From Scytalidium lignicola (Eukaryota > Ascomycota > Leotiomycetes): a stretch of DNA of 64,000 nucleotides. Both the position numbers and the translations under genes were made by a program. Under the pieces are notes generated by a model, which did not search any database, had not been told where the DNA came from, and saw only the letters and a list, made by a program, of their open reading frames with translations. This document shows positions 808-60,700 of the stretch, in pieces (position 1 is the stretch's first letter; each line of letters starts with the position of its first letter). The stretch covers positions 1-64,000 of the forward strand of contig NCSJ02000073.1 in the NCBI GenBank assembly GCA_002812745.2, written 5' to 3'.

Positions 808-847
808 TTAACTATTTAAGCTATGATTGACAAATCAAATACATGCA

Positions 848-7806: not shown

Positions 7807-8120
7807 CGCGATCTGCCTCTAGTATTACCTAAATGTCTTTTGCAAGCCTGAGCTAGATATTGACTGACGACATAGTTATAATTACTGTGCCACAACTCCT
7901 AGTGCTTCAGCTACTCCGCTGCAGAGTCGAGAAAAAGTGATTATATTAAACAGCTGACTTATCGATTTTAGAATATTTTGTGAAGGTTGAATGGCAGAAA
8001 GAGTTTAAAAACAGAGAAGGCTGTGTAACTTAGCCAGCTCTGAGCTGGCACCTGGCAGTCGAGTTTGCCTATCCCGCNGGCCACTAGGGTGCTGGAAACG
8101 AATCTGCTTTCCTCTATATT

Positions 8121-12671: not shown

Positions 12672-15600
12672 ATGGGGTTATTTGATCTGATAAAGCCCCG
12701 CCCTCTTCCGAGAAGACCTGATCTAAAGAGACGGTCACGGCAACGATTCTCTTCGACTAGTGTATGTTCAGAAACGCCGAGATTCGCTGTGTCTCAATGG
12801 TAATTTAATTTGAATTTGAAATAGGAATCTGAAACTAACGATGACACGGGTGACGGAAACTCTGTAAGTGTCCGAACTATGTCAGCCGCCGTTGCATCTA
12901 ATCATTACGGTCCTATTCCGGAAGTAGCGAAGCCGATTATTCGCGGAGCAAGGAACGTTTGACACCACATCCTCGAAGAAAACGTTCACGGCGACCTTCA
13001 TCAGCTCGACTCAACAAATCCGACGATAGATCTCGCCGGGTAGACCTCGATGAACAGTGTAAGAGGTATCAAAAGGAATTTGAGCTGAAAGTCCAGTCTA
13101 CTCAATGGAAAAAATCAATGAGATATTTGGAGGTTATAGCTCAGAATATGCGCTTCGACAGAGAGCTCCAGGAAGTTAAAACTCAGAGGGAGCACGACAA
13201 CGAGGCAATATCATCAATATCTTCTATTCCAGTAGAGGCAATTCACAACAAATTATATCGAAAACAACAGCATTCTGTCCAAGATAATGATGAGGTTTCA
13301 GACGAGTATCACTGCCCAAAAGATTGGTTCCTCGACGATGCTAAGAAATGGATTGATAAAAAAGATGGCACTCGGATATTCTGGCTCTACGGAAAATGTG
13401 CGTAAATCTACACTACACCATTCCTTTCACTTGCTAATATCTGGAGTAGATGGCATGGGTAAGACTTCATCAGTGTAAGTGTTTCACTACAATATTTACG
13501 ATCGATCAGTCTCTAGGACCTCAATTGTCTCACTTGAATTACTATAGTCATTTTGACTCAGGATAAGTATCCATATATTCTTCACAGTTATGACTACTTG
13601 TTGTCTTAAATCTCTTGGATCACTATAATTCCTAGATGGATCAGCCTGCTTCAGTGTCCTAAATCTCGTTGCAATTTTTTGAGTTTCTTTTTGCACATTA
13701 AGGGGGTTTCAACCCGATACACGCGGGACTCTATACCACATGGAGATGCACAAGCACTAAAATCTGTTTTCACAGTTCCCGGGTCGTACACTTTCTTCGG
13801 GAGTCCATTTCGGAAACCGACTCTGTTGCAGTTGATGGCTCAGAGCAACAGTTTGCCTACTTCTTCATTTCACGTAATACTGCTGAAGAAATTATTCGCA
13901 GCCTCGTCTCACAACTGGCACGTGGCTCAAATGGGTTTCTAGTACCGTCCTTGAATCTCTCACCATCTAAACTATCAACTCAAACAATAGAATGGTACCG
14001 GAAGAAGCTGAAAAACTTGATCAAATCTAAGAAGACAATATTAATTCTTGATGGTTTGGATGAATGTAGTGATACTAGCGAGCTACTGAACTACCTATCT
14101 AAGGAGATCCTACGATACTTTGCTACTAGCGCACTGAGCCGAAACCATAGGAATATCAGCGACGAGACACCTCTCATGCGTGCGGCCACGGAAGGCTCGC
14201 TCGAGTCTGTCCGCACGCTTCTCGAACTTGGTGCAACAGTCTCAGTCAGGAATATTAACGGTGATACCGTCATTCACTGCGCAGTTAGGCGTTCGAAATT
14301 AACCAAGAAAGTCCTTGAGCTGCTAATTGGGAAAGAGGCTGACATCAATGCTCAGAATGACAAGGGAGAAACAGCATTACACATAGCGCTAGATAGTAAT
14401 ACCTTTTCAAACGATGCTATCTGCGCTCTATTATTAGCAAATGCTAGCACCAGTATAAAAAACGCAAAAGGAGAGACACCACTGAGTATCAAAGACAGAG
14501 ACGGCAGATGTGCTATCCATCATGTTGCAAGTAAAGGCTCGCCAGAAAGAGTCAAATTACTTCTAGAACACGGAGCCTCTATTGATTCATCTGACAAGCG
14601 TGGGTGGACACCCTTATGTGTTGCTGCCAACTCTAGAAATTTTGCGATCATGAAAGCTCTACTTGAGCAAGACAAGGAAAAGGGTACTATTAATGCTCAG
14701 TTGACTGACGGAAGGACGGCCCTGCATATCTCGGCAATGAAAGGTGATTTCCCGGCGATTGAGCTCCTTCTGACCTTTGGGGCTGCCATTAACTTGACAG
14801 ATAAAGAAAAGCGAACACCGCTAAGGAGAGCGGTAGGACTTGGACATCAGAAAGCTGTGAGACTGCTACTAGAGAAGGGCGCAGACTGCAAGAGCACGGA
14901 TAAAACCGGCCAGACTCCTCTACACAGGGCAGTAACTTTCGGCCTGACAGAGGTTGCGAGAATGTTGCTTGATTATGAAGCTCCCTTAAACTTGAAGGAT
15001 ACATATAGCAGAACGCCAGCTATGCTATCGGTCCAAAGTGGGAAAGCAAGTACAATTCTTCTACTTCTAGAACACAAAGCAGAAGGCTTTCCCAAGCTTG
15101 AACCTTATAAATCAGATCCTGCTCAGTCAGAATCGGTGGATCTGGATGAGCGTATGAAACAATTCGTTATGATCGGACAGTTCTGGAAAGTTGTGACTGG
15201 TGAAGATATCTCAAAGTTTGAGGAATTTATATCAAACAAACAAACAGAACTAGAATGGATATTGAAGGCGAGGTGTGAAATGGGAGCAAGTGCATTACAT
15301 CTTGCTTCTCGCAATGATCGAGTCGAAGTAATTAAGGCTTTAGTCGACCGGTTCCATATCCCAGTCGACGATCCGACTGACGATGGTTTTACTCCTTTAC
15401 ATTCTACTGCAAAAAGAAGCAAGATTAATGCAACGATTACTTTAATTGCCATGGGCGCAAATGTAAACGCAACAAACAATTACGGCGCAACACCATTACA
15501 CCAGGCTGCTACATTTGGAGAGCCCGAAATTGTAAAACGCTTACTCGATTGTGAAAATATAAACCCAAATGTCGAAGACAGATACTTGCAAACCCCGCTT

Positions 15601-15798
15601 ATCTATGCAATTCGGAATGAGAAAGTCGAGAATGCCAAACTTTTATTGGAGAGAGACGATATTATCATCGATGTCAAGAACCACAAAGGGAGGATGGCAC
15701 TACATTATGCCAAAGACTTAAAGTCGAAGAAGCCGGAGCTAGAAAAGATGATTCTTGAGGCTATGGATAGACAGTGTGGGAATGAGGCTGGAGTTTAG
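12672..15798 (+). CDS. NACHT-type NTPase with ankyrin repeats
   Basis: A STAND-type receptor-like protein. Supported exons are about 12959-13397, 13450-13474 and 13776-15798. Introns GTGCGT..GTAG (52 nt) and GTAAGT..CACAG (301 nt) restore one frame. The 25-nt middle exon encodes the Walker A loop (GMGKTSS). FAYFFISRNTAEEIIRSLVSQL and Walker B ILILDGLDEC follow. The NACHT region then stops abruptly, and about 12 ankyrin repeats run from about 14155 to the end (for example DGRTALHISAMKGDFPAIEL). One repeat pair is fused (GETPLS joined to IKDRDGRCAIHH near 14480), suggesting an internal deletion. The N-terminus is basic and low-complexity. The start is unresolved: the frame at 12959 has no nearby ATG, and ATG at 12672 (MGLFDLIKPRPLPRR) followed by GTATGT may be a first exon. 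Such proteins act in fungal non-self recognition. Confidence 0.7.
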
Positions 15799-25637: not shown

Positions 25638-27852
25638 ATGGCAAGACTCCCTGTTCTCGATGCGCCCGTAAGTATTCTTATCCTTATTCTTACCCACCAT
25701 ATCGATTACGTACGATATGACAAAAGGCTTCATCGACTGACGACTGGGTCTTCCAATCCATTAGGCCTCGAGCTGGACTGTGCTCGTCTCCGAAGTCATG
25801 GCAGGCAGAATCGAGGTACCAATGTATATAGCCTCACCGAGTCCCCCGACACGCTGCCGTTGTCGATGCTAACGTTCGCTGCCAGAACAACAATGCTCCA
25901 GGAGATGGAGAACAACAAGCTGAGCCACGAAAGAAATATCGAGCGGTGACAGTCCGAAGGGACAGAACGGGTTGTGATACATGTAAGAAGAGGTACACAG
26001 AAGAAAATCTCACGATGCTGAGTGCGGGTTTGACTGAACCTTCCTCAACAGAAAGAAAAAATGCGACGAGGCGAAACCAAAATGCTCCGACTGTCGACGG
26101 CTCAACTTACCATGCGTTCGAACAATTCGTCCTCCCGCAACAGCTACATCGCCATCAGAAACCGCGTCAGATGGTAGTAGTGCTTTGCCAATGAAGATCG
26201 AACCCGACTTGTCGCAGTCCAAGATCTCTTCCCCTCCAAACCAGACCCCGCTGTCTGGTAATATCTACCCTGCCGCAGAGGAGAAAAGCCTCGCGCATCG
26301 GTCGCAACCCATATATCAATGGCTGGCCGCGAGACGTCCATCAGAAGCGTCGTCGTCAGCGGCAACAGATGGCCAAGAGCCCATCGATGATACCAAGCGC
26401 GAGGACGAGGAAGGTAATTCTTCTAAAACCGATGTGACAGTGGTAGGCTTTCGTCGTGGTGATACTCCTGATAGACAATCGAATTGGCTCCCTCTCGACC
26501 CAATGACCATACCATATACACTCACATTGAATCCGTTGGATCAACTTACGAATCGACAGGATCAACATCTCTTCCACCACTATATCCATGTTGTTTCGCG
26601 TTCATTATCCATAGCCTCGGAAGATGGCAATAATCCATTTCTCAAAATGCTGATGCCATTAGCGTCAGCATCCAATGCTGTCATGGGAGCTCTTCTTGCC
26701 CTGAGTGCCGTCCATCTCAAGTATAATGGTGGTTATCCAGAAATAGCACAAAGAGGTTTGAATCGACAAACAGAAGGTGACAACCACTTCTCTCCAAAAC
26801 GTCGCATATGCAGTCACTAAATGCCTCTAGCATTGATGTCACTCAATAAGCTCATCGCCACTGGCTTGTCGACCAGCTTCTTTAGAGAGCAAGCTCTTGC
26901 AGCTATTCTGCTCTTCTGTATCATCGATATCCGAGAAGGCAACTCTTCGAAATGGAGCTGGCACATTGCTGCAGCCAAGGCGGTTATCACCTCAGAGGGC
27001 CAATCTTCTGGACCTTCCACACACACTTCAGCGTGGCCATTCCTTCTTGATGTATTCGAGTATGTCGATTATATCATCACCATCAGCAAATGTAAACCTC
27101 CGTTAATCAATCACGAAAGCCTCCGACCTCAGGAAGATGCCAGCTCGTCAACTACATCCTCATCAGAGCAATCTTCTAAAGTACCTCAGTACAGTGCCAT
27201 CTTTGGCGTTGCACGTCCTTTATTCCGCATAATCGGCCAGATCTCCGAACTCTCCAGTCGCCGAAGTGAACGCGTTAATCCCGAGTTCGATGATTGGTTC
27301 CGCCAGGCTGCGAGAATGGTCGAGCTGAAACTCCGAGCTTGGAAGCCACCATACCAAGAAGATTCATTGCCTACCCCGTCATCCTCCATCATCTCATCAC
27401 CCTTAAATTCGGAAACAGTTTACGAGAGGGATCTTAGGGAAGCCACCCATGCTGCGCTGGCGATTAAATGGGCAAGCCTCCTTCGGCTCCACCAGATCGT
27501 GGAGGGCTACGTACTTCCACATCCGGTGCCGAGTGAATGTCTACAGCACATCCTCGACAACCTTCGACACATCCGAGTCGGGAGCGCGGTTGAGTCGTTG
27601 ATGGTCTTTCCCTTAATCATGGCTGGATCCGTGGCTTTATCCAAGGACGACAGAATGACCATCCGCAGTCGCTGGTTAATCATCGAGAGGACCATTGGGT
27701 TCGGAAACCTTGCGAAGGGAGGACGCATGCAGGAGAAAGTTTGGGACGATATGGATGAAGAGATGAATCGGGACTCGGGAGTCGCGACAAAGGTCACTGT
27801 TAATTGGGCTCGGACGAGATGGGAGCAATATCATGAACTGGTGTTGTTTTGA
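25638..27852 (+). CDS. Zn2Cys6 fungal transcription factor
   Basis: Five exons built by frame continuity: 25638-25667, 25765-25815, 25886-25992, 26052-26776, 26831-27852; 644 residues. The zinc cluster is split by the third intron; joined, it reads C-x2-C-x6-C-x6-C-x2-C-x6-C, from GCDTCKKR and KKKCDEAKPKCSDCRRLNLPC, preceded by a basic PRKKYRAVTVRRDR. The last intron (54 nt, a multiple of three) contains the in-frame TAA at 26818, so without splicing the gene looks broken; removing it gives QTEALMSLNKLIATG. The C-terminal part is a fungal-specific transcription factor region (ALAAILLFCIIDIREG, AALAIKWASLLRLHQ). A nuclear activator is likely, and its position inside the 17.5-27.9 kb enzyme cluster suggests it controls it. 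Confidence 0.85.
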
Positions 27853-29922: not shown

Positions 29923-30642
29923 TCAACAGGAAAGATACTGAATATTCCCAGTGGTATTAATACCATCCCAATCATCTGACTTCTCCAACAGACTTAGAAA
30001 GTTCTTCATACAATGATGAGCATGCTTTGTACTACCCGCTAGGCTATCCACCATCTCCCCGGCCTCCATGGCTTTATAAAAGCGCAATATCACAAAGGCA
30101 CAATGTGCCAGATATTCCCGCTTTGTAGACCAATACCACTTTTCATTCAGGTGCGCGAGCCCCTCCTCATCTAGAAGTTGCGTGCCCTCGCGATCAAGCC
30201 AGTACTCGTATGGGCGGTCTCCGGCATAGAGTTCGAAATCAGACGTTGCGGCCTGAGAGCAGGAAGGATGTTGCTAGGAGACGGTCAGACGGTCAAAAAC
30301 GCAACCGTTCTTGAGTGCGTCTGCACTGGAGTTGCCGCATGAATATTGGTAACGGGGGGTTTCAATCAGATGCTGTGGGATATCTGTCTCCGTTACTACG
30401 TTGTCGGGGTGGATTGAGGTTGACGGGCAGGAGTTGTGACTGCGGCAAAACTTTTCGGGAGCGATGCCATATATGATGGTGATTGTAAGAGAGATGAGAG
30501 AGATGGTTATTGCAAGGGCAAGGAAGAACTTATTGAGGTAGAACGGAGGGCGTGATGGTTCAGTGGTGAAGTCTTCGAGTTTGTCATTGTCGGACGTGGA
30601 GGTTTTGACCCTCTGGTATAGCCACTTTGGTTTGGGATACAT
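29923..30642 (-). pseudogene. UstYa-family (DUF3328) gene 1, interrupted by TAG
   Basis: The frame from ATG at 30642 has a cytoplasmic head, one membrane helix (NKFFLALAITISLISLTITIIYG, about residues 34-56) and the family's CGNSSADALKNGCVFDRLTVS block. It then stops at TAG (30274-30276) and runs on in the same frame for over 115 codons to TGA at 29923. The post-stop part has family marks: QHPSCS, KWYWSTKREYLAHC and KHAHHCMKNFL. The paralogue at 37439 has tryptophan exactly where the TAG lies (GCIFDTMSFIW), so TGG to TAG fits. The first HxxHC motif reads YLAHC; CAT to TAT is also a CpA to TpA change. UstYa proteins oxidatively cyclise RiPP cores; this copy seems inactivated by RIP, unless recoded. 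Confidence 0.85.
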
Positions 30643-32819
30643 GATGGTAATGGTGATGGCGATGATGAAGACACAGAGTAGATGATGTGTTCTTTGATAG
30701 GGAAGCCTACAAAGATAAGTTGTGTATACTGCAACCTACCCCTCGAATAAATGATGGGATCGAGTTGTAAGTTTGGCGGTAAGAACACTGAGGGGGGTGG
30801 GTAGGTGCTGGAGGTGATGGGGGAAGTGAGGGAGGTGAGATGAGGTAAACGCTTGGGAAACACGAGAAAGAAGTCATAGTGCAGTTTTGCTATTGGCTCG
30901 AGTAGGAACGGGGAATCACTTCATGGTTGTCTACCTCTGATAAAAGCAGAGCCTATTCGCATGATGCCCGGTTCTAGGTTTGTGCTTTAGGCTTTTTAGT
31001 TACATATGATAATATCGTGGCTGTGTGATAGCCAAGGGGTAATCCAGCAAATAACTGGGATTTATGATATCTGGATGTAAATCCTATTATTAATATTTCA
31101 AATCTTGGCAATTTCATGAGTTATAAAATCTAATATTAAGCCCTTCAAGGTTACATTTATTCAGACGCTCTCCTTGAGTTATGATTGAAATAGAATAATC
31201 TTGCTGGCAACCTCCCTAGAATGCTTGCTGTTGAATGGTAGCCTACCGCCGCCTACAGGCAACCACTGTAGAGCTGTAATACGGCACGTAATATTGCCGT
31301 ATTACAGGGGCCTACCGGCCCCTATGTAAGTGGCCATACTTGCCCACTGTACAGTAGTTAATTTAGTAGTCAATTTATATATATTCTATGGGAACCTATT
31401 ACGATCGGCATATGTAACCTGTTCAAGACTTGCCATATATAAGCACTAGATACTAACACCTTCCGCGACTAAAAATCTGTATTACTTATGTTTTGCCATA
31501 ATTGGTGTTTTCCCTATCATCGTTATAGCTAAAGTAATTTGATGTGAACTGACCATCAAGCGATAGTAATCATAGAGTCTTCTTCAACTTGTCAGATGAT
31601 GATAAGGATCCACCTGCAGTGATCAAGACAAGACAAGGGCAATTGCAGCATGTTTGACCTTTTGAATTTAGACAATAACAACCTTAGAACAATTGGCTGT
31701 GACACAAAAAGACATAAGGTATGAATGACCAGGTATGAAGAACCTATGAAAGAATGCAGACTAATATATGTCTCCTGCATCCATCCGATGCCGATGCAGA
31801 GACTGGGGTGGATGCTAGAAGTCCAGAAAGTAGGACTGCGCTCACATCTCCAAAAACTCATTGCTAGACTGAGGCACGTTACGTTACATGCACAAAATCC
31901 CAAAAAGTATTAAGGTATTTTCATAAGTTATAACTAAGCCGGCGGCTATTCGTTGTTATACGAAGCAAAGGTAGATCCGCTGCTAGAAGCTAGAAACCTG
32001 TCAGATAACCTTCTCTACGTCTAGGCCTAAAAAGCGGCCAAGACTTATTGCGCTAGCAAGGGAGGGGTATTCAAGCCTTTTGCATCCCACTGTACAAGAT
32101 GTAGACAAATCTTATCTTACCTTACCTAATTACAGTATACCTCCGTAAGCAATTACCTTCCTTAAATGGAAATCCGAAGCAGGGATTCAGAGCAAGGGTG
32201 ACAAGAGGTCGGGGCGGGGGGCGCAGATAAGCTTTTACGGGGAGGGGTCAGCTTTATCAGCGTGATCAGGTGTAAAGGTATGTAAAGTCTAGAATTGGGG
32301 TGTGCCCGTTGGTGTGTTTACCAATGAGATAACTCATCAACAGAAACAAAACCCATGTCAATGATGCCTGCTTCCATGCAGCTGGTGTTATGCCGATCAC
32401 ATCTTAATCAATAATTCCGAATTGAACAACTAATTGAAAGAGAAGCCGAGGTAAGCAATTAAGATAAAAACATGGGAGTTGTGCTGCTTACAAATATCAC
32501 GTAAGATGAAGAGACGATTTAGTAAACTTAAACTAATTTTAGTCTCTGACGTTTGGGAGGGAGAGAAACTTTCTTAGACTCAGCCCAAATTGACTTCGAA
32601 GCCAGCAAATCTTCGAGATCATGGGGGTTAGTTAGATTGACCAACCGAAATCCAAGAATCAGAACATCAATGTAAGTAGAAAGAAGGGTAGTTTTAGCTT
32701 TCACTTGAAGGATGAGAGAATTCACTAATCATGTTTAATCGAGTCGAGTGTACAGTACGGTATCTAGATTCTCTCATCTACAGAAACTGTAATCCAATTC
32801 ATTTCTCTATCTCCCCTAA
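30643..32819. other. Intergenic region with repeat fragments
   Basis: 2.2 kb. It holds a possible diverged LTR-like block (about 31229-31500: GTAGCCTACC, GCCTACAGGCAACCACTGTAG, TATATATTCTATG, TCTGTATTACTTATG; similar in layout but not identical to the Copia LTR). It also holds an isolated mariner-type end (32033-32092, GGGGTATTCAAGCC...TTTTGCATCCCACTG then TA). No coding gene is supported; short open frames have no family match. Confidence 0.45.
32033..32092. repeat. Isolated terminus of the mariner-like family
   Basis: About 60 bp matches the right end of 28261-29787 (AAGACTTATTGCGCTAGCA, TTGCATCCCACTG) and is followed by TA. No partner end was found within the next few kb, so it is a truncated copy. 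Confidence 0.6.
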
Positions 32820-33899
32820 TCATTCATGCATGTTCACTCCCTCAGGCGTATTATCCCCTGCCTGATGCAGATCCGCCCATTGTCTCAATGGCTCGTACTT
32901 TTTGCAAGTATGCGTTGAGTTGAAGTTGGGCTGGTAGGCATGTTTATTCTCGTTGTACCGGAAGCCGATAATGCCAATGTCGCCATGGCAAGTTAGGACT
33001 TGGCGAAGGTAGTCTATGCAGTGGTCTTTTATGCATATATCAGTGATTTGTTGTGGATATAATTTGAGACTGGGGAGGGAAAAAAGAAAGAAAACACACC
33101 AATGTTGTTTACCTCCTCTATCTGCGTGTTTTCCTTCCCGTAGAAGATGAAAGGCTCCTCAGCCCAGATCGCTTTCCGAATCATGTTCTATTCTGATCCA
33201 TTAGCCTAATAAATCTGCTGAACTTGTTTTTACTTCTCCTCTGGCATTAGCTTAACTGAGAATCTCACCAGGCAGTGCAGCTGATGCCACATCTCAATGG
33301 CGCCGATGTAGTACTGCTTCCCATCCAACATATAGGGGACTGTTGGGTCGGGTAATCTTTCCGCTTCCTCAGGCTCCAAGGCAGTTATCCCATCTGTTGA
33401 TCCGTACATGTTAGTTAGGGCAGAGAGCAATTCAAAGCAGCACCTTTCGTCGTGCGTAAAGGTGGACAGGAGAGAGAGATATCATGACTCACGTCGAACT
33501 AAGTCGTTCCATGCTTTTTCAGTCTCGTTGTTCGGCGTTCCCATGTATATGGTACTTTGGTGCCAGAGCCCCATATTGAAACGGACCGTCTCATTCTGGA
33601 CTGAATCTCGCAGCGGTGCTCGGTATCATTAGTTACGAACTGATGCCGATGGTATCCCCAAACTCACAATAGAGATCCAAAGTCGAACTGTGCCGCGAGA
33701 GGACCGATTGTCGAACTAGCGCTATCGTTAAGAGTATAGAGATGCCGTATGAGAGAAAGAGGTGCCAGTTGCGGTTGGAGGCTCGATTGTGAGGATAGAG
33801 AGTGGCCTGTTCTTCGAAGACGTCGTCATCTGATGCGGTTGTTTCCTCGCTCGAAGACAGTGAGCTGTATTTCTTCTGATTATGGAATGCTGCGCACAT
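32820..33899 (-). CDS. UstYa-family (DUF3328) protein 2
   Basis: Five exons (33899-33668, 33618-33493, 33393-33269, 33187-33100, 33025-32820) with four introns of 49-99 nt; 258 residues. An acidic cytoplasmic head precedes one membrane helix (WHLFLSYGISILLTIALV, about residues 45-62). The enzyme part shows VQNETVRFNMG, ETEKAWNDLV, the first metal-ligand motif HQLHC in AIEMWHQLHCL, and the second NIDHC in NNIDHCIDYLRQVLTCHGD, followed by F-N-S-T-H-T-C. The second motif has Asn for the first His. UstYa-type proteins are membrane-anchored oxidases acting on ribosomal peptide cores, usually two or more per pathway. It is one of four on this strand next to the Kex2-type precursor at 39224. Confidence 0.88.
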
Positions 33900-34871
33900 A
33901 GTTCAAGAATGAAGAATGTGATTTGTCTTGTTTGTTCTTTTCTATCTGTTCTATCCAGTTTCTGTATCAGGGGAGTCGTGTAAGTCGTAAGTCATGATTG
34001 AGTCAACGGAGACTCGTAGTGCTAGAGCCGAGCCGAGCAGAAGAAAACGACGTGTGACTTGATGAACCAGTACTTATTTGGTACAATTGCCTCTTCTTTC
34101 GAGTCTTTCTTTTCGAGTTTGGGCAGCAAGCCTGTAGAGCAGACACCTACTGTGTTAGACTAACTGGCTGGAGCTAATTACTGAGGTGAGAATTGTAGAC
34201 CCATAATCGGGCAACTGGCTTAATTGGTCCCTTATTCGACCGGATAATTGAATCGGGAGCTAGAGTAGGGTTCCTCTACAGATGGGGGCGTATTCTTAGA
34301 TTATGCACTATCCTCTTTGTTCATCCAATAATATATTCAACAAGGAAGTAAAGCATCTCGCAGTTTATGTACGGTACAAGGAAGCTAAGTATCTCGTATT
34401 CCTACATGATGCGCTGTTCCTCTGGGTCTATCCAATAGGATGTCAACAAGGAAGTTAAGCATCGTTGTAATTACCATATCTCGCATCTATTTCTGCTACC
34501 GGTTTTATTACGGCCTGGCCCTTTCCAATGGTGGGGTGAGGGAGCCGAGATCATACTGTCTAATCTAAACATATTCATTGTAACCCTCCCCATCACCTAC
34601 ACCTCCAAGGTACAGTACCTTACGAAGAATACCACACTCCATGATCCTCCCCAGCCTCACTCCCTGTACAGGGTTGGCCGCATACATGTGCAGAGTCACG
34701 TTGGTGTGCCTGGTCAATCTCGCATTCATATAAATTTTCAGTTAGGGTTAAATTCTAAGTACGGAAATATCTAATGTCTACCTACGCACAATAATTAAAT
34801 GATTGCCTCATTTCGAAGTCCATAAGGTAACCAATTAGCTACATAGCTAAACTACCGTGTCATACCCCCCC
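33900..34871. other. Intergenic: UstYa-2 promoter and UstYa-3 3' flank
   Basis: An imperfect direct duplication of about 45 bp containing ATCCAATA (CCAAT-type) and CAACAAGGAAG lies at 34311-34355 and 34418-34463. No gene. Confidence 0.5.
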
Positions 34872-35765
34872 TCAAATTCCGTCATAGTCTGAATACCGAT
34901 ACTTCTCCGCCCAGTCATACAGCGTATCATAATTCCGACACTGATGCGGATTCCCATAGCCATCCACGCCGTTAAAGTCCACCTTGAACGGCTCCAGGGA
35001 GCTGTCCGCCGCACACATGATGCTCTGCCGCAGATACGCGAAGCAGTGCATCGTGTGCATCTCGCTGTCCGTGTTGCCGTCCACGGCGGCGTAGTACCCG
35101 TAGCGGAGGAGGTACAGACAGTGAAGTTGGTGGAATGCTGAAACGCAGTATTTGCCTGTTCCACCCGTCTCCATGTTGCGGACGTACGCTGGCACTTCAC
35201 CTGCTGCCTCTAGCTTCTCCAAGCTTACGAATCCCTTGCCTTCTTTATGTAGCAACGAGTTTGTTAGTATAGGGTTTTGGCAAAAATCTACTCTGGAGTC
35301 GGGGAATATGGAACTGTGGACATACTTGGTATGAGATCCGCCCAAGCCTGATTCGTCTCATTGGACGGGTGCTGGACGAATATTGGTTCAAACTCATATG
35401 TTTTCATCATGTCGCCAACTATATATATATATATATATTACGTCAGCTTATATCGATCGACGTGGAGTTGAATTTGTTTAGTAAGACTTACGAGTAGGGA
35501 GGTTGAGATCAGGCAACGAAGACCCGCTATTCTGGCTGTTGTGATGGAAAAGTCGAGCAGAAATCTGTTGCGTAGCCAACGTAGCGAGTATTGAGAAGGC
35601 GGCGCTCAGAAGAACAACAGCGACGAGATGGCGCCTTCTCGCTCTTCTACTGTTGCAGTTTGGGTTTTCGTGATCTAAGGCAAAGACTGGGGCATATTCT
35701 TTGGATTCATTGTTATATGGTTCTAGAAATGTGCTATGCTCGTCTTCGGAGCTTGTTCGAGACAT
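34872..35765 (-). CDS. UstYa-family (DUF3328) protein 3
   Basis: Three exons, 35765-35492, 35418-35326 and 35242-34872; 245 residues. The first intron ends in a (TA)n tract. An acidic/polar head precedes a basic stop (RRARRRH) and one membrane helix (LVAVVLLSAAFSILATLA, about residues 47-64). The lumenal part has FVQHPSNETNQAWADLIP, KGFVSLEKLEAAGE, the first HxxHC in VSAFHQLHCLYLLRYGYY, and the second in MHTMHCFAYLRQSIMCAADSSLEP, then GYGNPHQCRNYDTLYDWAE. Both His-Cys motifs are intact, so this looks like an active oxidase. Of the four paralogues it is closest in layout to protein 2 (both have the YLRQ-x4-C block), but their intron numbers differ. It is probably a cyclase for the neighbouring precursor. 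Confidence 0.9.
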
Positions 35766-37438
35766 GTTGTGTCGGTCTTGTGTATTTGAAAATGTCTGGA
35801 TGAATGAACGAGGAGTATATGATTGCCGAGTGGATCCGCTACGTTGTGTTTTGATATATTGTATGTATTGTGTTTTGTTGCGATCATAAAGTGGGTGAAG
35901 GCCTTGGACTTGGACTTGGAAATAGGTTGATTAAGTCATGTGGAACAGTGTGAGGAATTGCTAGATAGTCGGAATTTCCTTTTCGGTGATCTATAATTGA
36001 ATAAACCAGTGGGTGGATGAGTGAGAGAGTTGCAAGTTTGAAACGAAGAAGAGGATGGATGGGGAATACTGGATACCTACTCTCTTACTCTATCTCTCCA
36101 TTTCTCTATCTATTAACCTAGCTAGCTGCTTGCTTACCAAACCAAGGAAATTAAAATAGGAAATGAAAGCCGCTTCGTCATTCAACCCTAGATAAGGGAG
36201 AACTGATAGGAACTAAAGGTAGGGTATAGAAATAAGTTCGTCCACTCCACTACAGCTGTAGGATTTATTAGATCTGTTGGGCATCCTTATCCTTGCTTCT
36301 CTAAACTAGTTTGATAATTAACTAGCCTTTTGCATGGTTCTGGATAGCTTGATAGATAACTGTCTATCAACATAATGTTAGCTTTCAAGCTTGCTTATTT
36401 AACTTTGCTCTTGTGACACAGCTATGCATATGCATACGTACACTCAAATATATAATGCCTAGTTAGGTAGGTAATATTGCAAGTAGTAAGCCTAGCTCTA
36501 GGCGTGGTTCGTTATCTAGGTAAGTAAGCAAGCTGAAGGTAAGTAAATATTTAGTGACTGGTCGAGTCAGGGAAAGAAGAGGGGGAGGGGAATGTAACAT
36601 GCCATACAGCTGTAGTGTGAACTCATCTTTGCTTATTGACTCTATAGTAGTTAATCCTTATACTTGTCTATTTAAAATAATTAAATATTTAGCCTTTTAC
36701 ATGGTTCCAGATAAGTTGAAAAACAATTGTTTAGTTGCATAATGTCAGCTCTCAAGCTTCCTTGCCCGCGTGACACAACTATACATATGCATAAGTATAT
36801 GTACACTCAAATACACAATGCCTAGTTAGGTAGGTAAAACTGCAAGTGTCAAGCCTAGATCGCTATCTAGCTAGGTTAGCGTGGTAAGAGAAGTAAAAAT
36901 TAAGTGACTGATTGAGTCGGGGAAAGAAGGGCATGCCATGCAGCTGTAGTGTTAACCCGTCCTTGCTTGTCAACTCTAGTTAATGCAGAGTATCCACCTT
37001 GACCATAAATCAAGATTTAAGATGTTGGTTGTGCTGTTAACTGTGCCGCTGGTTGGAGAAGCGTTATTGGTCCTGTAATACGGCTGTAGAAGGCTGCTCG
37101 GACATAGCCATTGAGCGAGTAGACTGGCACGTCAAGATCGAGCTGGAAAGAGAAGTTCCAGGATGGAAAGTAAATAGCTCAATCAATTAGTTTCCAGTAA
37201 GTATTCTGGAGTATAGCATATGATCAATGCTTTACACCTATGGTAACGATGCACTTGTGACTCTGGATTCTGGATTCATAACTGCTTTCTATGTTCCTTT
37301 CCTTCATCCGCTACCTTACGTGAATTATAATCAGAGGCAATCATAGCTACAGAACGAACTGTCTTCCCATGCTCCAAAACCTTCCATATCATGGATCACT
37401 CTTGCGAGCGTGTTGATTCCTGCCACCTCCCTCCGTAA
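35766..37438. other. Intergenic: UstYa-3 promoter and duplicated block
   Basis: 1.7 kb, no gene. It includes a direct duplication with a 367-bp period (36323-36654 and 36690-36983), described separately. Confidence 0.5.
36323..36983. repeat. Imperfect tandem duplication, 367-bp period
   Basis: Copy 1 (36323-36654) and copy 2 (36690-36983) share TAGCCTTTTRCATGGTTC, CATAATG, CACTCAAATA, AATGCCTAGTTAGGTAGGTAA, GCATGCCAT/CATGCCAT and ACAGCTGTAGTGT/GCAGCTGTAGTGT blocks, ending at CTCTAGTTAA-type sequence. Copies differ by transitions and small indels. Non-coding. Confidence 0.65.
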
Positions 37439-38170
37439 CTAGAAACCCCCATATCCACACGTAGTAAACTGCCTCCCAATATGCGTATTGACCTGATCAT
37501 TACCCCACCACTCCCCCTTCTGCAACATCATCTCACAATGCATTGTATGATTATAAGCCGCCAGATAACTATCCAGTGGTCGGCCACATATGAGCGCGCG
37601 ATGCATTTTGCGCCACTGAAACGTACAATGCACGGTATGGAACTCCCACGGTACCCAGGCGTCGAAGTTCCCCGTCCGTACATCGTCCATTGATATCAGT
37701 TCCCCATTACCCTTCTCGCCGTGGTACTCAGTGTACCATTTCCAGTCGCGCGCCATCTCGAACTCAACCGTCAGCTCGTGGTCGTAACATGCCGGATGAA
37801 CCCAGATAAAGCTCATGGTATCAAATATGCAGCCGAGGGATTTGGCTTCTGGGACTGAGGAGCCACAACTGTAGAGTGTGTCTTCAGAGAGCCAGGGTTT
37901 GCCGGTGGGGGTGACTGAGACGGTGGATTGTTTTGCTGTGAGGAGGAGGTAGAGGACGACGCCGAAGCAGGTCAAAGAGATAAGTGTAAGCCAGGAGATG
38001 ACCAGACTTTTTAGTGAGAGTCGCCATTTTTTGTCTGAGAGGTACTTCTGATGATGTTGAGCTTCTTCCTCGTGCTCGAGCTGCTTGTCATGTAAGAAAG
38101 AGTGTTTTTCTTCCTCCGGCTGCATGGTGATATCTGATTCGCTTCCAATTGACGATCGTGAGCTCTCCAT
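37439..38170 (-). CDS. UstYa-family (DUF3328) protein 4
   Basis: A single exon of 243 residues. A long, charged cytoplasmic head (Glu/His-rich, about 50 residues) precedes one membrane helix (LVISWLTLISLTCFGVVLYLLL, about 56-77). The lumenal part shows the blocks shared with the pseudogene at 29923: YSCGSSVPEAKSLGCIFD, TMSFIWVHPACYDHEL and DWKWYTEY. The first HxxHC is FHTVHC, the second NHTMHC, then a closing Cys (TTCGYGG). Both motifs are intact. With the pseudogene it forms one UstYa subtype; proteins 2 and 3 form another. Pathways of this kind often need two different UstYa enzymes for ring formation, so protein 4 plus 2 or 3 could make a working set; this is inference. It is the copy nearest to the precursor gene, which is divergent from it. 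Confidence 0.92.
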   Translation of the reverse strand: MESSRSSIGSESDITMQPEEEKHSFLHDKQLEHEEEAQHHQKYLSDKKWRLSLKSLVISWLTLISLTCFGVVLYLLLTAKQSTVSVTPTGKPWLSEDTLYSCGSSVPEAKSLGCIFDTMSFIWVHPACYDHELTVEFEMARDWKWYTEYHGEKGNGELISMDDVRTGNFDAWVPWEFHTVHCTFQWRKMHRALICGRPLDSYLAAYNHTMHCEMMLQKGEWWGNDQVNTHIGRQFTTCGYGGF

Positions 38171-39078
38171 TTTTCAAGTTATCTGACCGATGGACTTGAG
38201 CTGCTTATACTGAGTCAGCTCATGAGGAATGACTTATGATGAGAGAGTGACAACTATACCGGCTCAATGTTAATATGTGATGTTGATAGTGATATTCAAG
38301 GTAGGGATATGAGAGAGCGATGAGTTCAAGCTTGAAATACAACAGAACAACAAAGCAGATAGTCCATCGACCTCCAATTTAAAAGAACTAACGTGATATC
38401 AAATAAACAAACTGGGCGATGATGAGATATCCGACATCTGAGAGAGGGAAAATCTATTTTGAGACGGACGACACAAGGAAGCTGTCATACCTTTGTCATC
38501 CTCGTCACTTACTCAAATAATTCACCCCGCACTCATCCATCCCTCTCTTATCTGTTTCCCTGCTAGATTCGCTGGCTGATAATACCTGCCCTGTACTCAA
38601 TCATATCACCATGCATGCAGGTGCTTTGAATAGTAATATAGAATACGAGGAAAGCTTACATTTAGTTAAGCTTCGTGTGTGTAGACAAGACGTCCACCGC
38701 ATGTAGCTTGGCAGGGGGAGGGCAAAGAAGTGCAGGGATAACCTGCAGCTTTACGATGCATTTTTTCATCATGATGCAGCTTGATATTTGACAAGGTTGT
38801 GCAAGTAAGCAGAAGAGTGAAGCACTCTTTCCTGACAATCGATGGGTCCGTCATAGAGCATAAGCTAAGATATGTTGACGCGGTAATGAACGAACGAAAC
38901 ATATTCGTTCGGCCTCTAAATGTGCTGATCATAGTGAGGTTTGGGAGGAGTGGGTAACTCACCTTACTCATTGGGAAGAAAGAAAGGTAAGTGAGCAAAC
39001 TAGTTAGGCTTCATGGTGCAATATTTGTCTACTCGCCCATTTCTTAGTTGGACTATCGTTGAATCGAGTTTCTCAGCC
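38171..39078. promoter_or_regulatory. Divergent region, UstYa-4 / RiPP precursor
   Basis: About 1 kb between the two start codons pointing apart. No convincing gene lies between. Co-expression of cyclase and precursor from here is plausible. No factor-binding site can be named. Confidence 0.45.
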
Positions 39079-39223
39079 TATATATTTATCATCCCTCACT
39101 CATCCCTTATCCTACATCCTCTCAAGTTCCCATCCTTAATAGCCATCTCTCTTTCACATCTTCAAATTACCTCTTTGCCTCTAAATTAAATTCTCAGCTT
39201 CCTAACCGACCACCCAACAAACC
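39079..39223 (+). promoter_or_regulatory. TATA-like box and C/T-rich leader of the precursor gene
   Basis: TATATATTTA at 39079-39088 is followed by about 130 bp rich in C and T with CATCC/CATCTC runs. A CAAACC sequence lies directly before the ATG. This layout is typical of strongly expressed fungal genes. Transcript ends are not known. Confidence 0.5.
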
Positions 39224-39406
39224 ATGAAGTTCTCCGCCATCCTCCTCCTCGCTGTCTTAGACATTGCTCTCAGTGCGCCATTGGCCGTCAAGGAGAGAAC
39301 TGTGGGCGCTATCTCGGACGAGTGGAAGCGTGAAGAAGGCGTCGTTAGCTTTCAGGGAGAATATAATGACGAGAAGAAGCGTGAGGAGGGTGTCGTTAGC
39401 TTTTAG
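39224..39406 (+). CDS. Kex2-processed RiPP precursor (dikaritin/UstA-like), 60 residues
   Basis: The signal peptide MKFSAILLLAVLDIALSA is followed by a short leader (PLAVKERTVGAISDEW) and then two units that begin KREEGVVSF. The first unit continues QGEYNDEK into the next KR, making a 17-residue repeat. Lys-Arg is the Kex2 cleavage site, and repeats with identical segments between such sites define UstA-type precursors. Four UstYa-family genes next door provide the matching cyclases. The reading frame ends at TAG directly after the second VVSF, yet the next 24 bases still match the first repeat codon for codon (allowing synonymous changes) and end in TAA at 39428. The stop therefore arose by CAG to TAG, an RIP-type change. 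The released core would lie within EEGVVSFQGEYNDE; which residues form the ring is unknown. I do not recognise this core. Confidence 0.82.
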   Translation: MKFSAILLLAVLDIALSAPLAVKERTVGAISDEWKREEGVVSFQGEYNDEKKREEGVVSF

Positions 39407-39427
39407 GGAGAGTATAACGACGAGAAG
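39326..39427 (+). repeat. Two 51-bp precursor repeats
   Basis: Units 39326-39376 and 39377-39427 each start AAGCGTGA. They encode identical residues apart from the TAG in unit 2; nucleotide differences are otherwise synonymous (for example GAA/GAG, GGC/GGT, AAT/AAC). Synonymous drift with conserved residues points to selection on the peptide. Confidence 0.85.
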
Positions 39428-39430
39428 TAA

Positions 39431-55055: not shown

Positions 55056-57713
55056 TTGGCACTCACTGATGGGATGTTGCCATGTTCTGGGCCGTCGTTG
55101 GGGGATTGTGGTTCCACAAAGATAAATCCCCGCGCTAGTTTTGACGTCACTCTTAGTTTAAGAGATCATGTCATAATCACCGGCAAACAAAGTGCCTGAG
55201 GCTGATGATTAATAAATGACTTACATGTGATATGTGTGCATCAGTCAGTGTTGAGATTGTATACTACAACAAAACTTATTGAATCTGGTCTGGTAGTTAA
55301 AACATCATTAAACTAATGTGGTGAAAAAATGTGTTATTTAGCTTCTTAAAATCCAAGTGAAAAATCAAATCCACTTAATTTGTGTTCATTTCTCATAGAA
55401 GCGGTCATATTATATTTACTTCTACTGAATACGAGTGAAAAAGAAAGTCGCACAAGCGTGAAGCCGACGATTACTGTTTTAGGGGAAGGGGGACTTGAGA
55501 CATGGGTGATTAGAACAGATCAATCTTCTAGAGAGGCTTCGGAATGCATCTCTATATATTGTTTACCCTTATTATTTATTGTTGATTCTATTTGCCGCTA
55601 TCTATGTTATGATTCGTCAGTTAGAATACACCCATTCCCTTATATAATGCTCCTGCTTCTGAGATTTCCTTTCCCGTTTCTAAATCCGTTCATGTTGGCT
55701 GCTTTGGCTTTCCTTAGCTCGACTTGGCTCGGATTTAGGCGTCGATGAGCATCTGTATGCCGACGATTCCGGATATGATCTTACATTTCCGGCTTAAAGA
55801 AAAGGATGAGAGAAGTTAGACCAGATCCTTCTTAATCATTTCTAATCTTCCCTTACTCTCTCTAATGATCCTTCTTCCGCAAAATGACATTGCAAAGGAG
55901 TGAGGCCGAGAGGCAGGATTTCAGGAACCAGATTGCCTTTAGTCTGGTTGCTCGGAGCAGGCATCCATTTATCTCGTTAAAGGTTGGGTTGGGTTGGTTG
56001 CAGGAATGTGTTGACGGAGTGGAGATATTGCGAGAAGAGTGCGTACTTGATTATAATAGAGACCGAATAAAGGAAACTGGTTAGAATTGAAATTGAAGCA
56101 AACCAATACAATAAAGTCTGCTTGCAGTGTTCAGGTGTACTCGATGTTATAACAGATACGTCCTGGTGAAGAATATCTGCCACGATTGGAACAATACGAA
56201 AACCAGACCTATCCCTCTGTAGCCCTGCCACTGCCAGCCTATATTGGCCTGTATTACTGCAGTAATACCTTACCTCATCTCAGCTGGGGGGTTACACTCG
56301 CAATAGCACTAAGGAACGCCAACGTTTAGTTCAACCTCGCCATTCCTCTAGGCTTCCAGAACTGTACCTGTCTAGGGGCCGAGAAAGCATTAGTAGCATA
56401 ATAATATACAGTACTTGTACACACACCATGCGACATTGCGATGCACAACCTGGCACAGGAACTTCCCCTGCCGTGCAAAACCATACACATTGTCAAGTAG
56501 ATGGTCACTTGGCGTCGTCAGCAATCGTAAAAATCCGAACTGCCTTCGATGTACTCCGTAAACGAGGTATTACTATATAAGTATACCCAAGCAAATCTAG
56601 GCTGCTGCTGATGAGAGGCCATTTGCATCCCGATACCGTATAAAATGTTCCACCTGCTGACGTCCAAGTTGCCTGTGTGGACCTGGTGTAACTTACCGGT
56701 AGTGCCGCTTCCAGGCAGCGGATTGAAGTGTGATCACGTGATTATATCGAAGGGACTGTATTAGCTATAGCCAATCAGCAACTATGCCATACGCCTTGCC
56801 GAAGAGGGGACAAGGCTAGCCGCCCATTCATCACTAAGCTCTGCAGCCCTGTAGCCAGACAAGGCACCCAGGCCGCTAGTGACCATAGCCGACCTCCACT
56901 CGCCTCCCGCGCGGCGCATCGCATCTAGGCAACTACATTTTGGTCCTCGGCGATCAACCACCATCCCAACACCCATCCACGTCCCTTCCACTCATTTCCG
57001 CTCCTTTTGCCCTTTTGCCCTTTCGCCCTTTCAATTCTTGCCTGGTCCAAATATCCAAGATCGCGCGGGTCTGTGTGTGCGGGGCGTGTAGGCATCCAGA
57101 TATTGGCCCTTTCTCGTGTCCATTGGGTTGTGGTTGGCCGAACGAGGCTGGGCTGGCTGAATTGCCTGCGATGACTGATGATTGAATGATCCACTCAGTT
57201 GATTGTCCGTGTTTCATCCACGCTGCCAGATTCGATAATTCGGTCTGCCTGGAAGGTGCTGAGAGGGTCCTCCAAGCTGTCCGGCGTTTGAAAAGACTAC
57301 GAATGCGAGTGCCAGGCGCATACGTGCATTTTGCGTTGCGTTGTGCGGCAGGCAGAGACTCTTTCGTCTGAGTGAACGCTTTATATTCCTGCGACGGTAG
57401 GGTGGCATAGTAGTCCTGCTCTCGAGTTCTCAATTCTCGCAGAGCTTTTCCTTCTGGATCTGGATTCGGATTCTTCCTTCGTCTTTCCTCTTCTGGCCTC
57501 GCATTCGGAGGCCCTGGCGTGATACTATTCCTGGTTCTGACATCCTTTCTCGGTATGCGCCTGGGAACTGGACGACTGCTCAGATCCTCTTCATCTATTC
57601 ATTCATCCTTCTGGTCTCAATCCTCCTCTTCTTCTTCTTGTTGCCCCTCTTTTCTTTAATCTTTTCGCTCCAGCCTCCTCGCTTGAGGACGCTCAATAAT
57701 TTCTCCTTCCACC
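55056..57713. other. Long intergenic region with leader of the HeLo-kinase gene
   Basis: 2.7 kb without a supportable gene. From about 56850 the DNA becomes GC-richer, and from 57440 it is C/T-rich up to CCACCATGG at 57714, a good start context and likely 5' UTR/promoter. Short overlapping frames at 56780-57430 have no domains. Confidence 0.5.
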
Positions 57714-60700
57714 ATGGAGTCTCTCCTGAGCTATACGCTGCCTTTCCAGCGTCGTCTCACCAAAATGTATACCGATACCAAATCGTCATATGACTTCGTC
57801 AAGGAGCCCGTCTCAACCATCACTGAAGACCCGGAGCTGCTCTCTCTACACCGCAAACTGCGCATCCAGAAAGACCGGCTCGTCTCCTGGGGTCTCGAGT
57901 GGTCCGATTCTAGCACCCAGTCCCCTGATATCGACGAGTCCATCTCCAAGGCCGGTCTGAGTGAGCTAGTCGGCAGTGTTATGACTACCATCAAGGAAGT
58001 GTTAGCTGAGGCAGAACCCCTTTGGCAAAGTAGTAAGAGCGGGAGTAGTGGCAATGAGAAGGGTGGCTCGGTCGGAGCTGGCGAGAAAGCACCTTTGATT
58101 ACCTGGGATAAATCTCGCTTTCAGGACCTGGTGAGAGATTTGACTATGAGTATCGACACGCTTTATGATCTGTCGCGTACAAGGCAGTCGGCACGGAGAA
58201 GAGGTGCGTTGAAGAGCGAGGCCGCGGCTAGCGGACCTCTAAAAAGCCCCGCAGCGTTGGAGGAGAGGCTCTTTGAGTCGACAAGGATGCAGACACCGCA
58301 ACAGATTGATCCCGCCACCATCACCTGGCCAAAGGATATCAAGTCAGTGTCGACTTCGCAGCTGCAGCCGGCGAGATCTCCTCGGGAGATTGTGTTTATG
58401 AAGAGACCAGTAGTCAGCCATGGCGAGAAGAAAGGTTCGTCTGCACCGGTAATGCCTGTGCTCTTGGAACGCGCTCCTTACGATCCCATTTACTCTATTA
58501 CTGGAATTGCTCCTTCTATGACAAGGTTTGAACGACTATTTTCTGCGCTCTCACAGGCATTTATCTCCTCAGATCGCACTGTATCCGGCCTCCTTCCCCT
58601 AATCGGTTACTTCGAAGAGCCAGAAGAATCTCGCTTCACTCTCTTATTCGCTCTTCCTACACACTTTGGTCCGGTAGATATCGAGAGTCCTTCTATACCT
58701 ACTATTACTACATTATTTGGTTTACTTACTCACCGTGGCAATGAACCCCCCCTTGAGACCAAATTCAGACTTTCTTACAACGTTGCTAATGCTGTCTTTG
58801 ACCTCCATGCCAAAGGTGTGGTTCACGGGGATGTCTCCTCATCGAGCATCATCTTTCTCGACCAATCGCCGTCAAAGCCTGGCGTCGACATCACTCAGGT
58901 TAATATTCGCAGGTCTTACCTCTCCTCTTTTGATCTTTTTTCCGACAGTGCAACTCCAGATACCGAATCGACCATCGAAAAGCCGTTGTATAGACACCCG
59001 CTTGATCCCCGAAACACTCGATATACCCACTTCACATCCGATTCTAAGTCCTTGGATCTCTACAGCTTAGCGATTCTTCTGCTGGAAATTGCGTTCTGGG
59101 CTCCGTTAACAGACATCTACCCGGGTATGTCAGTCATCCCCGAGAACACAACCACACTTTTTCAACAACTCGCAACAAGGTGTGGTTCTCTCTACACAAA
59201 GGCAGTCCAAGCCTGTTGGCATGCGCCTGAGGATGAACTATCAGCAAAGGCTAGGCCTGATGTCATGCACCAGAAAATCGTCTCGCGCGTCTCCCGAGCT
59301 CTAGATACCTGCTGCGCTATCGATGATACTTCCGAGGAGGATCAGGGTGAGCACAAGGAGGCTGTAGTATTTACCCCGATGTCTGTGCCTGTTAGGAGCC
59401 GGAGTGATGAAAAGTCACCAATGGTTCCGTCATCTCTACAGCGGACGGCAATTAGAGATGAGAAGCGGATAGAGTCATCAGAGAAGAGGGATCCAACTAG
59501 TATGTGCCAATTTACACCCTCGATATCTATCTTTCTGAAGGTACCCTAACATTCTTTAGCTTCGATTCCACCTCCAACCAAAACACTCCAACACACCATC
59601 CCTCGACCTAAACTCCGTACCTTTCCTAGCATTCGTATAAGCCAAGAGCATCTCAACTATTGGCACTCTTCCCTCATGCCACAAATTAACCACGTTCTGA
59701 GTGCCTTCTACAAGCGCCATCCTGAGTCTGTAGAGATTAGTTTGGAGAGTATCGGTGAGACAGCACTGAAGGCCAGACCAACTATACTTGTCATATGCAC
59801 TAGTGTGAATAAAGTGCGGGCCATCTTAAAAAANGTCTTTGGTATATGATAAGGCAACTTACGGCTTGAAGGTGTGCCGTGGGAAAGTTGTAAGGAGTAG
59901 GAAGCACGGCACTCGAAGATCCATGGCGAATGAACTCTATGGAGAACCTGTCGAAATGAAGGCACAGAATACAGAACATCACATACGTCCATTGAACGGT
60001 TCATCCATCGGTGCCTTCGTCAACGATAAACACCTACCTCCAGTTTCATTTGGAGGGCTGATTGAAGTCGACGGTCAGCCATATGGCATGACAGTACATC
60101 ATCTCCTCGATGACCCAGATGAGGGAGATGAAGAAGAATTTGAACCACAGCCGTTGATCCATCGTTCCAGCGCATCTCGTTCCCAAAATACTGATTTAAT
60201 GCCTGATCTCACCCATTCCGACTCCTCTGTTTACAGCGGCTCAGAATACGATTATCACTTTGAATTCTCAGACTATGACTCCGATGATGCAGCTTCTGAA
60301 GATGAGAGTTCAATATCGGAGGATGATTTTTCAATCTATGCTGATGATAATGAAGCCTTCATTCATCATTCTCATGAACCGGGCGACATCCCTGGAGTTC
60401 CAGCGGGCTTTGGAGAAGAATACATTATAACCCAGCCGGCAATCGATGATGTCGACCCCAATTTCTACGCTAGTGACGAGACAAAAGATGAGGAGCACCT
60501 TGACACCTTTACTCTTGGGGAAATTTATGCAACCAGCGGGATTCGAAGACGAACAGACTCTTCCGGCCTCTTGCATGAGATAGATTGGGCTTTGTTCCGA
60601 TTCAATGACGAGCGCCTACCAGAAAAGAACGAAATCAGAAACGGAAGTCGATACTGCAAATCTAAAGACCCATATCCGCTCGCTGTGGCCCCCATTGAGG

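What the first reader, a model, noticed from the sequence alone, without database searches (positions are those of the whole stretch)
29923..39430. Candidate new Kex2/UstYa-type RiPP gene cluster
A small secreted precursor with identical Lys-Arg-bounded repeats sits beside four UstYa-family genes on one strand (two structural subtypes: 1+4 and 2+3). This combination defines the dikaritin-like fungal RiPPs. The repeat core EEGVVSFQGEYNDE is not one I recognise; it has one Phe and one Tyr as possible cross-link residues. The cluster lacks a visible tyrosinase, P450 or methyltransferase, so the product may be a simple cyclic peptide, or tailoring genes lie farther away (46.5-52.4 kb or 17.5-27.9 kb).
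Basis: partly seen in the sequence, partly recalled or inferred. Interest (0 to 1): 0.92.

Follow-up and report, generated by a model that had tools for sequence, protein, structure and literature searches.

The report
Decaying fungal cyclic-peptide gene cluster
A mould, Scytalidium lignicola, carries a small gene cluster of the kind that makes modified, often ring-shaped peptides, but one of its enzyme genes and half of its peptide gene are interrupted, and two of its four enzyme genes belong to a copper-enzyme branch that the standard protein-family database does not recognise.

Summary
The window matches Scytalidium lignicola. A secreted-type precursor (39224-39406) lies beside four genes with UstYa-like copper motifs. 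Genes 2 and 3 are PF11807 (UstYa/DUF3328). Genes 1 and 4 are not called by Pfam; they belong to a divergent branch ('type II' here) built on HxxHC(x)nHxxHC, linked to UstYa by a modest profile match. In this genome 9 of 12 type II genes outside the window lie within 10 kb of a PF11807 hit (8 of 29 PF11807 loci, window included, have one), and on 4 of the 9 contigs a Kex2-type repeat array lies within 5 kb of a type II gene.

The second precursor repeat holds an in-frame stop, leaving one complete core. Gene 1 holds an in-frame stop and lacks a motif histidine; gene 2 lacks one histidine in all 3 open splice models found. An intact two-repeat relative exists on an unnamed ENA contig (71% identical).

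Best reading: a partly degenerated dikaritin/KEP-type RiPP cluster. The cluster is a new member of a known kind; the Pfam-less, co-clustered type II oxidases are the more novel part. No chemistry or expression was tested.

The parts
39224..39406 (+). Precursor ORF, 60 aa: secretion-signal-like N terminus, spacer ending in Lys-Arg, one complete Kex2-bounded repeat, second repeat cut short by TAG
   Evidence: relative with two uninterrupted repeats P0010, E 1.3e-21
39332..39373 (+). Complete core EEGVVSFQGEYNDE, Lys-Arg before it and Lys-Lys-Arg after it
39383..39430 (+). Second repeat with in-frame TAG at 39404-39406, and untranslated remnant to the old end
37439..38170 (-). Gene 4: one open frame, 243 aa, type II UstYa-like; N-terminal helix, Cys-rich segment, both HxxHC motifs intact
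34872..35765 (-). Gene 3: UstYa family (PF11807), 2 introns in my model, both HxxHC motifs intact (HQLHC, HTMHC)
32820..33899 (-). Gene 2: UstYa family (PF11807), 4 introns in my model; first motif intact (HQLHC), second reads NIDHC
29923..30642 (-). Gene 1: type II UstYa-like, in-frame TAG at 30274-30276 and first motif YxxHC; probable pseudogene
26038..27852 (+). Zn2Cys6 / Fungal_trans_2 transcription factor, about 2 kb from gene 1; possible cluster regulator (position only)

Best explanation
This is a Kex2-processed-repeat (KEP) / UstYa-type RiPP cluster that is partly degenerated in this strain. The precursor would enter the ER through its N-terminal signal and be cut by Kex2 at Lys-Arg to free the 14-residue core EEGVVSFQGEYNDE (inferred). 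Membrane-bound copper oxidases of the secretory path would act on the core; gene 3 (PF11807) and gene 4 (type II) keep all ligands of the binuclear copper motif and are the likely working pair, forming an oxidative bond at Tyr or Phe or hydroxylating a C-H (inferred from the family). Gene 1 is probably dead, gene 2 doubtful, and the precursor delivers one core where its relative delivers two. Shown here: sequence anatomy, family assignment, motif status, genome-wide co-clustering. Inferred: secretion, cleavage, chemistry, and decay in place of an assembly error.
For: PF11807 over cut-off for genes 2 and 3. HxxHC(x)nHxxHC is the binuclear copper site of the DUF3328 enzyme CctR (PMC12435403, whole text read). 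Type II family: both motifs invariant in 11 of 11 sequences of A2; the AlphaFold model of gene 4 puts one motif on each of two helices, 175-194 and 206-223 (mean pLDDT 76.7). Type II versus UstYa profile: hhalign score 35.1 with the two motifs in register, against at most 15.1 in 20 column shuffles and 2 reversals; gene 3 hits the type II HMM at E 3.6e-7; 2 of 17 members hit PF11807 at E <= 0.01. Co-clustering: 9 of 12 type II genes outside the window within 10 kb of a PF11807 hit, on 7 of 9 contigs; Kex2-type repeat arrays within 5 kb of a type II gene on 4 of those 9 contigs. Intact two-repeat relative. Stops in precursor and gene 1; gene 1 pieces match type II (E 4.2e-16 and 8.6e-7).
Against: Only one complete core remains; the KEP survey definition asks for three or more repeats. 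The profile link of type II to UstYa is modest (hhalign probability 45%). Only 8 of 29 PF11807 loci, the window's included, have a type II hit within 10 kb, so UstYa clusters do not generally need type II (counted). No repeat array was found in the stretches scanned on 5 of 9 type II contigs, and of the 4 arrays only that on C340 has a hydrophobic start in its own open frame. No PDB match to the gene 4 model reached E 0.001 (22 listed at E <= 10), so the fold is unanchored; the gene 3 model is too poor to compare (mean pLDDT 41.7). Linkage of this precursor to oxidases in relatives is untested. The stops rest on one draft assembly, which I take to be the Ion Torrent one of PMC6256649. The gene 2 motif depends on a predicted splice site.
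Confidence: 0.75

Rival explanations
1. Fully working cluster: the stops are sequencing or assembly errors in a draft genome, and the strain makes a two-core precursor and four oxidases.
For: Ion Torrent draft assembled from five million reads of 140-260 bases (PMC6256649, whole text read); an intact relative of the precursor exists; silent differences between the repeats suggest past selection.
Against: Two in-frame stops without frameshift in one small cluster, plus a missing motif histidine in gene 1 and one in gene 2.
Confidence: 0.15
2. The stops are recoded in the mRNA (fungal A-to-I editing) or read through, so full proteins are made in some stage.
For: Both interrupting codons are TAG; frequent editing of UAG stops during sexual reproduction is described in ascomycetes such as Fusarium graminearum (PMC11156358, abstract and passages).
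Against: Genome-wide editing was not identified in apothecia of Botrytis cinerea, a Leotiomycete (PMC11156358 passage); Scytalidium species generally lack a sexual state (PMC6256649); gene 1 also lacks a motif histidine.
Confidence: 0.04
3. Unmodified secreted peptide (pheromone-like or signalling KEP) that merely sits near UstYa genes.
For: Only 22% of KEP genes have a DUF3328 gene nearby (abstract of PMC7329392), so KEPs without such neighbours are common.
Against: A type II gene lies about 1 kb away and two PF11807 genes within 7 kb; the core holds Tyr, as do 65.6% of repeats near DUF3328 genes against 38.2% of the others (PMC7329392 passage); [quoted passage not shown]
Confidence: 0.08
4. 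Genes 1 and 4 are not UstYa relatives but an unrelated family with convergent HxxHC motifs.
For: 15 of 17 members miss PF11807 at E <= 0.01; distinctive Cys-rich segment before the motifs; hhalign probability only 45%.
Against: Score far above shuffles, gene 3 hits the type II HMM, same order of N-terminal helix, domain and two motifs on two helices as described for CctR, strong co-clustering.
Confidence: 0.1

Closest known systems
Dikaritin RiPP clusters (ustiloxin, phomopsin, asperipin-2a)
   Same: Secreted-type precursor with Kex2-bounded repeats next to DUF3328/UstYa oxidases; ustiloxin, phomopsin and asperipin-2a have 2, 5 and 1 DUF3328 genes (passage of PMC7329392). That asperipin-2a needs no tyrosinase is recalled.
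   Different: Core sequence unlike the named cores as I recall them; only one complete core; two of four oxidase genes outside PF11807; no PF00264 match on the contig
Kex2-processed repeat proteins (KEPs, Umemura 2020, PMC7329392)
   Same: Signal-like N terminus, Lys-Arg-bounded repeats, DUF3328 neighbours
   Different: One complete plus one cut repeat (two in the relative); the survey asked for at least three, so a gene like this would be missed. A table of the paper names Scytalidium for KEP types G-2 and G-3
CctR and other DUF3328 copper enzymes (PMC12435403)
   Same: N-terminal membrane helix, helical domain, HxxHC(x)nHxxHC in genes 3 and 4
   Different: Type II members have a Cys-rich segment (C-G, E-A, G-C, W, C invariant or nearly so) and 15 of 17 miss Pfam's PF11807 at E <= 0.01

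Membership tests
DUF3328/UstYa (PF11807) | Score over Pfam's gathering cut-off, genes 2 and 3 | tested here: met
   Pieces at 66.9, 25.6 (gene 2) and 84.6 bits (gene 3) against a cut-off of 25
DUF3328/UstYa (PF11807) | Score over Pfam's gathering cut-off, genes 1 and 4 | tested here: not met
   No PF11807 match for gene 4 or for either piece of gene 1
DUF3328/UstYa superfamily | HxxHC(x)nHxxHC copper motif, genes 3 and 4 | tested here: met
   Both motifs complete
DUF3328/UstYa superfamily | HxxHC(x)nHxxHC copper motif, genes 1 and 2 | tested here: not met
   Gene 2 reads NIDHC for the second motif in the splice models found; gene 1 reads YLAHC for the first
DUF3328/UstYa superfamily | Copper binding, dimer, oxidase activity | not testable with these tools
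   Needs protein
Dikaritin RiPP | Class-defining DUF3328 enzyme in the cluster | tested here: met
   Two PF11807 genes within 7 kb of the precursor; definition from passages of PMC12048977
Dikaritin RiPP | Precursor with several Kex2-bounded core copies | tested here: not met
   One complete copy and one cut by a stop in this strain; two copies in the relative P0010
Dikaritin RiPP | Side-chain cyclised peptide product | not testable with these tools
   Needs LC-MS
KEP (PMC7329392 survey definition) | At least 3 tandem repeats of 8 aa or more between Kex2 sites | tested here: not met
KEP | N-terminal signal peptide | tested here: inconclusive
   Hydrophobic stretch (mean hydropathy 3.0 over 10 residues); no signal-peptide predictor was run
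KEP | Kex2-type protease in the genome | tested here: met
   One P_proprotein (PF01483) match, E 2.8e-19

The most novel reading that the evidence does not exclude
Type II proteins are a second, Pfam-unrecognised family of binuclear copper peptide oxidases that work as partners (heteromers or sequential enzymes) of UstYa in those fungal RiPP clusters that hold both, here about a quarter of the genome's UstYa loci (8 of 29, counted), so mining by PF11807 alone misses part of their oxidation machinery.
Probability: 0.2. Interest if true: 0.75.

Novelty: new variant of a known kind. Interest (0 to 1): 0.5.

Why it matters
If type II genes are real RiPP oxidases, mining by PF11807 undercounts the enzymes of some fungal RiPP clusters, and the pairing of UstYa and type II genes gives a directly testable reason why clusters can carry several oxidase genes. 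The cluster itself looks like a fungal RiPP pathway caught while decaying, with an intact relative of its precursor for comparison.

Tried and rejected
Repeat-induced point mutation as cause of the stops: the composite index is negative over the cluster (-0.30) and over the gene 1 stretch (-0.64); only the 207-base precursor stretch is positive (+0.25), too short to weigh. A splice that removes the stop in the precursor (public model P0009): it discards the second core, which the relative keeps, so I treat it as a gene-prediction artefact. A splice removing the gene 1 stop: none of the donor patterns I listed falls between its start and the stop (other GT donors were not examined), and both flanks match the family profile. 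Structure search of gene 4 in the PDB gave nothing convincing, nor did sequence searches of the PDB. The gene 3 structure model was too poor to use. Rfam and tRNA scans of the window were empty. Paper searches that might show a described Pfam-less UstYa-like family or UstYa heterodimers showed none in the titles and abstract beginnings listed; the listings are mostly unrelated to UstYa, and most subscription papers are not held. One script error: one search read minus-strand loci on the wrong strand; redid them.
Full report
What the window is. The contig holding the window is 154,900 bases, and the public proteins B7463_g4768 and B7463_g4769 of Scytalidium lignicola, which match gene 4 (98% over 76%) and the precursor (98%), lie on a contig of 154,900 bases. 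I take the window to be that fungus (Leotiomycetes), and probably strain DSM 105466, sequenced with Ion Torrent reads (PMC6256649, whole text read). The genome held is 46.85 Mb in 664 contigs; the paper reports 47.7 Mb in 826 contigs, so the two are not the same file.

Precursor. The ORF at 39224 reads MKFSAILLLAVLDIALSAPLAVKERTVGAISDEWKREEGVVSFQGEYNDEKKREEGVVSF and then meets TAG at 39404-39406. It has a hydrophobic start, a Lys-Arg site, one complete repeat, a Lys-Lys-Arg site and a truncated second repeat. The DNA copies differ at 6 of 45 positions: five are silent and the sixth makes the stop. Of 20,000 random sets of six transitions, 1.6% change at most one residue, so the repeat was probably kept under selection before the stop arose; this test was chosen after seeing the differences. 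The protein search returned 2 matches of 2 candidates: the public model of this same gene, and P0010 from an unnamed ENA contig of 8,361 bases, 71% identical, with two uninterrupted repeats. No second copy of the precursor was found in the genome (1 match). The public model P0009 avoids the stop and loses the second repeat; I regard this as an artefact.

Oxidase genes. Genes 2 and 3 hit PF11807 above cut-off. Predicted exon chains give complete proteins of 252 and 260 residues, each with a hydrophobic stretch near the N terminus by eye; each is one of 3 open models found in the splice-site ranges I tried. Gene 3 has HQLHC and HTMHC. Gene 2 has HQLHC, but NIDHC for the second motif in all 3 of its models. 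Gene 4 is one open frame with HTVHC and HTMHC. Gene 1 is split by TAG at 30274-30276; its two pieces match the profile of gene 4's family separately (E 8.6e-7 and 4.2e-16 for a search space of 12,795; best of 400 shuffled pieces E 2.6), and its first motif reads YLAHC. Alanine mutants of the histidines and cysteines of HxxHC(x)nHxxHC, which binds two copper ions, abolished activity of the DUF3328 enzyme CctR (PMC12435403, whole text read). Gene 1 is therefore probably dead, and gene 2 doubtful.

The type II family. Gene 4 had 8 relatives of 99 candidates in the protein collection and 12 of 2,302 candidates with a profile: three from S. lignicola, one each labelled Thelotrema lepadinum, Agyrium rufum and Mikania micrantha, and six without a species name. 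All 11 aligned sequences of A2 keep both HxxHC motifs and the positions C102, C114, W123 and C128. In the wider set A1 the first motif is invariant in 17 of 17; in the second, one member has Tyr for the first His and one ends before it. A1 holds 9 of the 12 type II genes outside the window; those on C421 and C115 and one of two on C643 were not aligned. Pfam finds PF11807 in 2 of 17 members (best E 3e-4), NCBIfam nothing (0 of 17). A UstYa profile built from 12 sequences or fragments of this species aligns to the A1 profile with the two motifs in register: score 35.1, P 2.2e-4, probability 45%; 20 column shuffles scored at most 15.1 and two reversals 14.8 and 14.4. Gene 3 hits the type II HMM at E 3.6e-7 and gene 2 at 0.007. 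I conclude remote homology, not membership of PF11807. The AlphaFold model of gene 4 (11 sequences, mean pLDDT 76.7, pTM 0.57) has a long N-terminal helix and carries the motifs near the starts of helices 175-194 and 206-223, in line with the description of CctR. No PDB match reached E 0.001 (22 listed at E <= 10). The comparison model of gene 3, from 3 sequences, failed (mean pLDDT 41.7).

Co-clustering in the genome. One search gave 15 matches to gene 4 at E <= 0.01. Two are in the window; two on C115 I counted as exons of one gene; that leaves 12 genes on 9 contigs. Of these, 9 of 12 lie within 10 kb of a PF11807 hit and 7 of 12 within 5 kb; by contig, 7 of 9. The three others are C157 (no PF11807 hit on the contig), C628 (47.8 kb away) and one on C221 (16.1 kb). 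PF11807 loci with 10 kb margins cover about 1.3% of the genome; the binomial value of 2.5e-15 treats neighbours as independent, which they are not, so the contig count is the fairer figure. In the other direction, 8 of 29 PF11807 loci, the window's included, have a type II hit within 10 kb (counted), so most UstYa loci do without one. Shared ancestry by tandem duplication could contribute. A scan of the fetched stretches (not whole contigs) for Kex2-bounded repeats found arrays within 5 kb of a type II gene on C340, C115, C365 and C44 (4 of 9 contigs) and none on C157, C221, C421, C628 and C643. Of the four, only the C340 array has a hydrophobic start in its own open frame; the others would need an upstream exon. 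Resampled sequence gave 0 hits in five sets of 261,928 bases; in the real set one weak tandem-repeat hit at window 820-906 looks like chance, and two of three frames over the C521 array are shadows of the third. That stricter scan did not flag the window's precursor; the looser one did.

Surroundings. Of 30 window ORFs or pieces scanned with Pfam, none is a tyrosinase, P450 or methyltransferase; this was a selection of ORFs, not all. A Zn2Cys6 regulator lies at 26038-27852. FAD-binding proteins, an MFS transporter piece and a 2OG-Fe(II) oxygenase piece lie at 21.8-24.6 and 46.9-52.4 kb; nothing ties them to the precursor.

Mechanism. Shown: anatomy, families, motif status, co-clustering. Inferred: signal-dependent secretion, Kex2 cleavage (one Kex2-type P domain match is present), trimming, and copper-dependent oxidation of the core by genes 3 and 4. 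The core holds one Phe and one Tyr; 65.6% of repeats near DUF3328 genes hold Tyr (PMC7329392 passage). Whether the product is cyclic is unknown.

Verdict. A RiPP cluster of a known kind, apparently decaying in this strain. The part that departs from the known is the type II oxidase family beside UstYa genes.

Noticed in passing
L030 453-893 (C340:28453-28893): Kex2-repeat precursor with about four copies of AEDGADEYGAKWAKR or close variants, about 0.6 kb from a type II hit and between two PF11807 hits.
   Followed up: partly
L041 8904-9383 (C521, minus): Kex2-repeat precursor QTPDNGNYVYFDKEKR, seven similar copies, on a contig with seven PF11807 exon hits but no type II hit.
   Followed up: no
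L035 4281-4664 (C365): About 13 copies of DIESVDKR, a short acidic repeat without aromatic residues, 0.7 kb from a type II hit.
   Followed up: no
L001 75-278 (C188, minus): Repeats of PPYHPNIDVVDKR about 1.2 kb from the best PF11807 hit of the genome.
   Followed up: no
P0012 (B7463_g5111, contig of 147,088 bases): Public gene model that appears to fuse the first half of a type II gene to the neighbouring UstYa gene; such models hide type II genes.
   Followed up: partly
P0014: A type II protein in a Mikania micrantha (plant) assembly, possibly fungal contamination or an endophyte.
   Followed up: no
window 7102-7818, 13702-15795, 57687-59546: HET domain, NPHP3_N-ankyrin and HeLo-type genes: fungal incompatibility-type proteins in one window (that reading is recalled).
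   Followed up: no
window 26038-27852: The transcription factor domain PF11951 runs over two ORFs in one frame with a stop between them; an unmodelled intron is likely.
   Followed up: no
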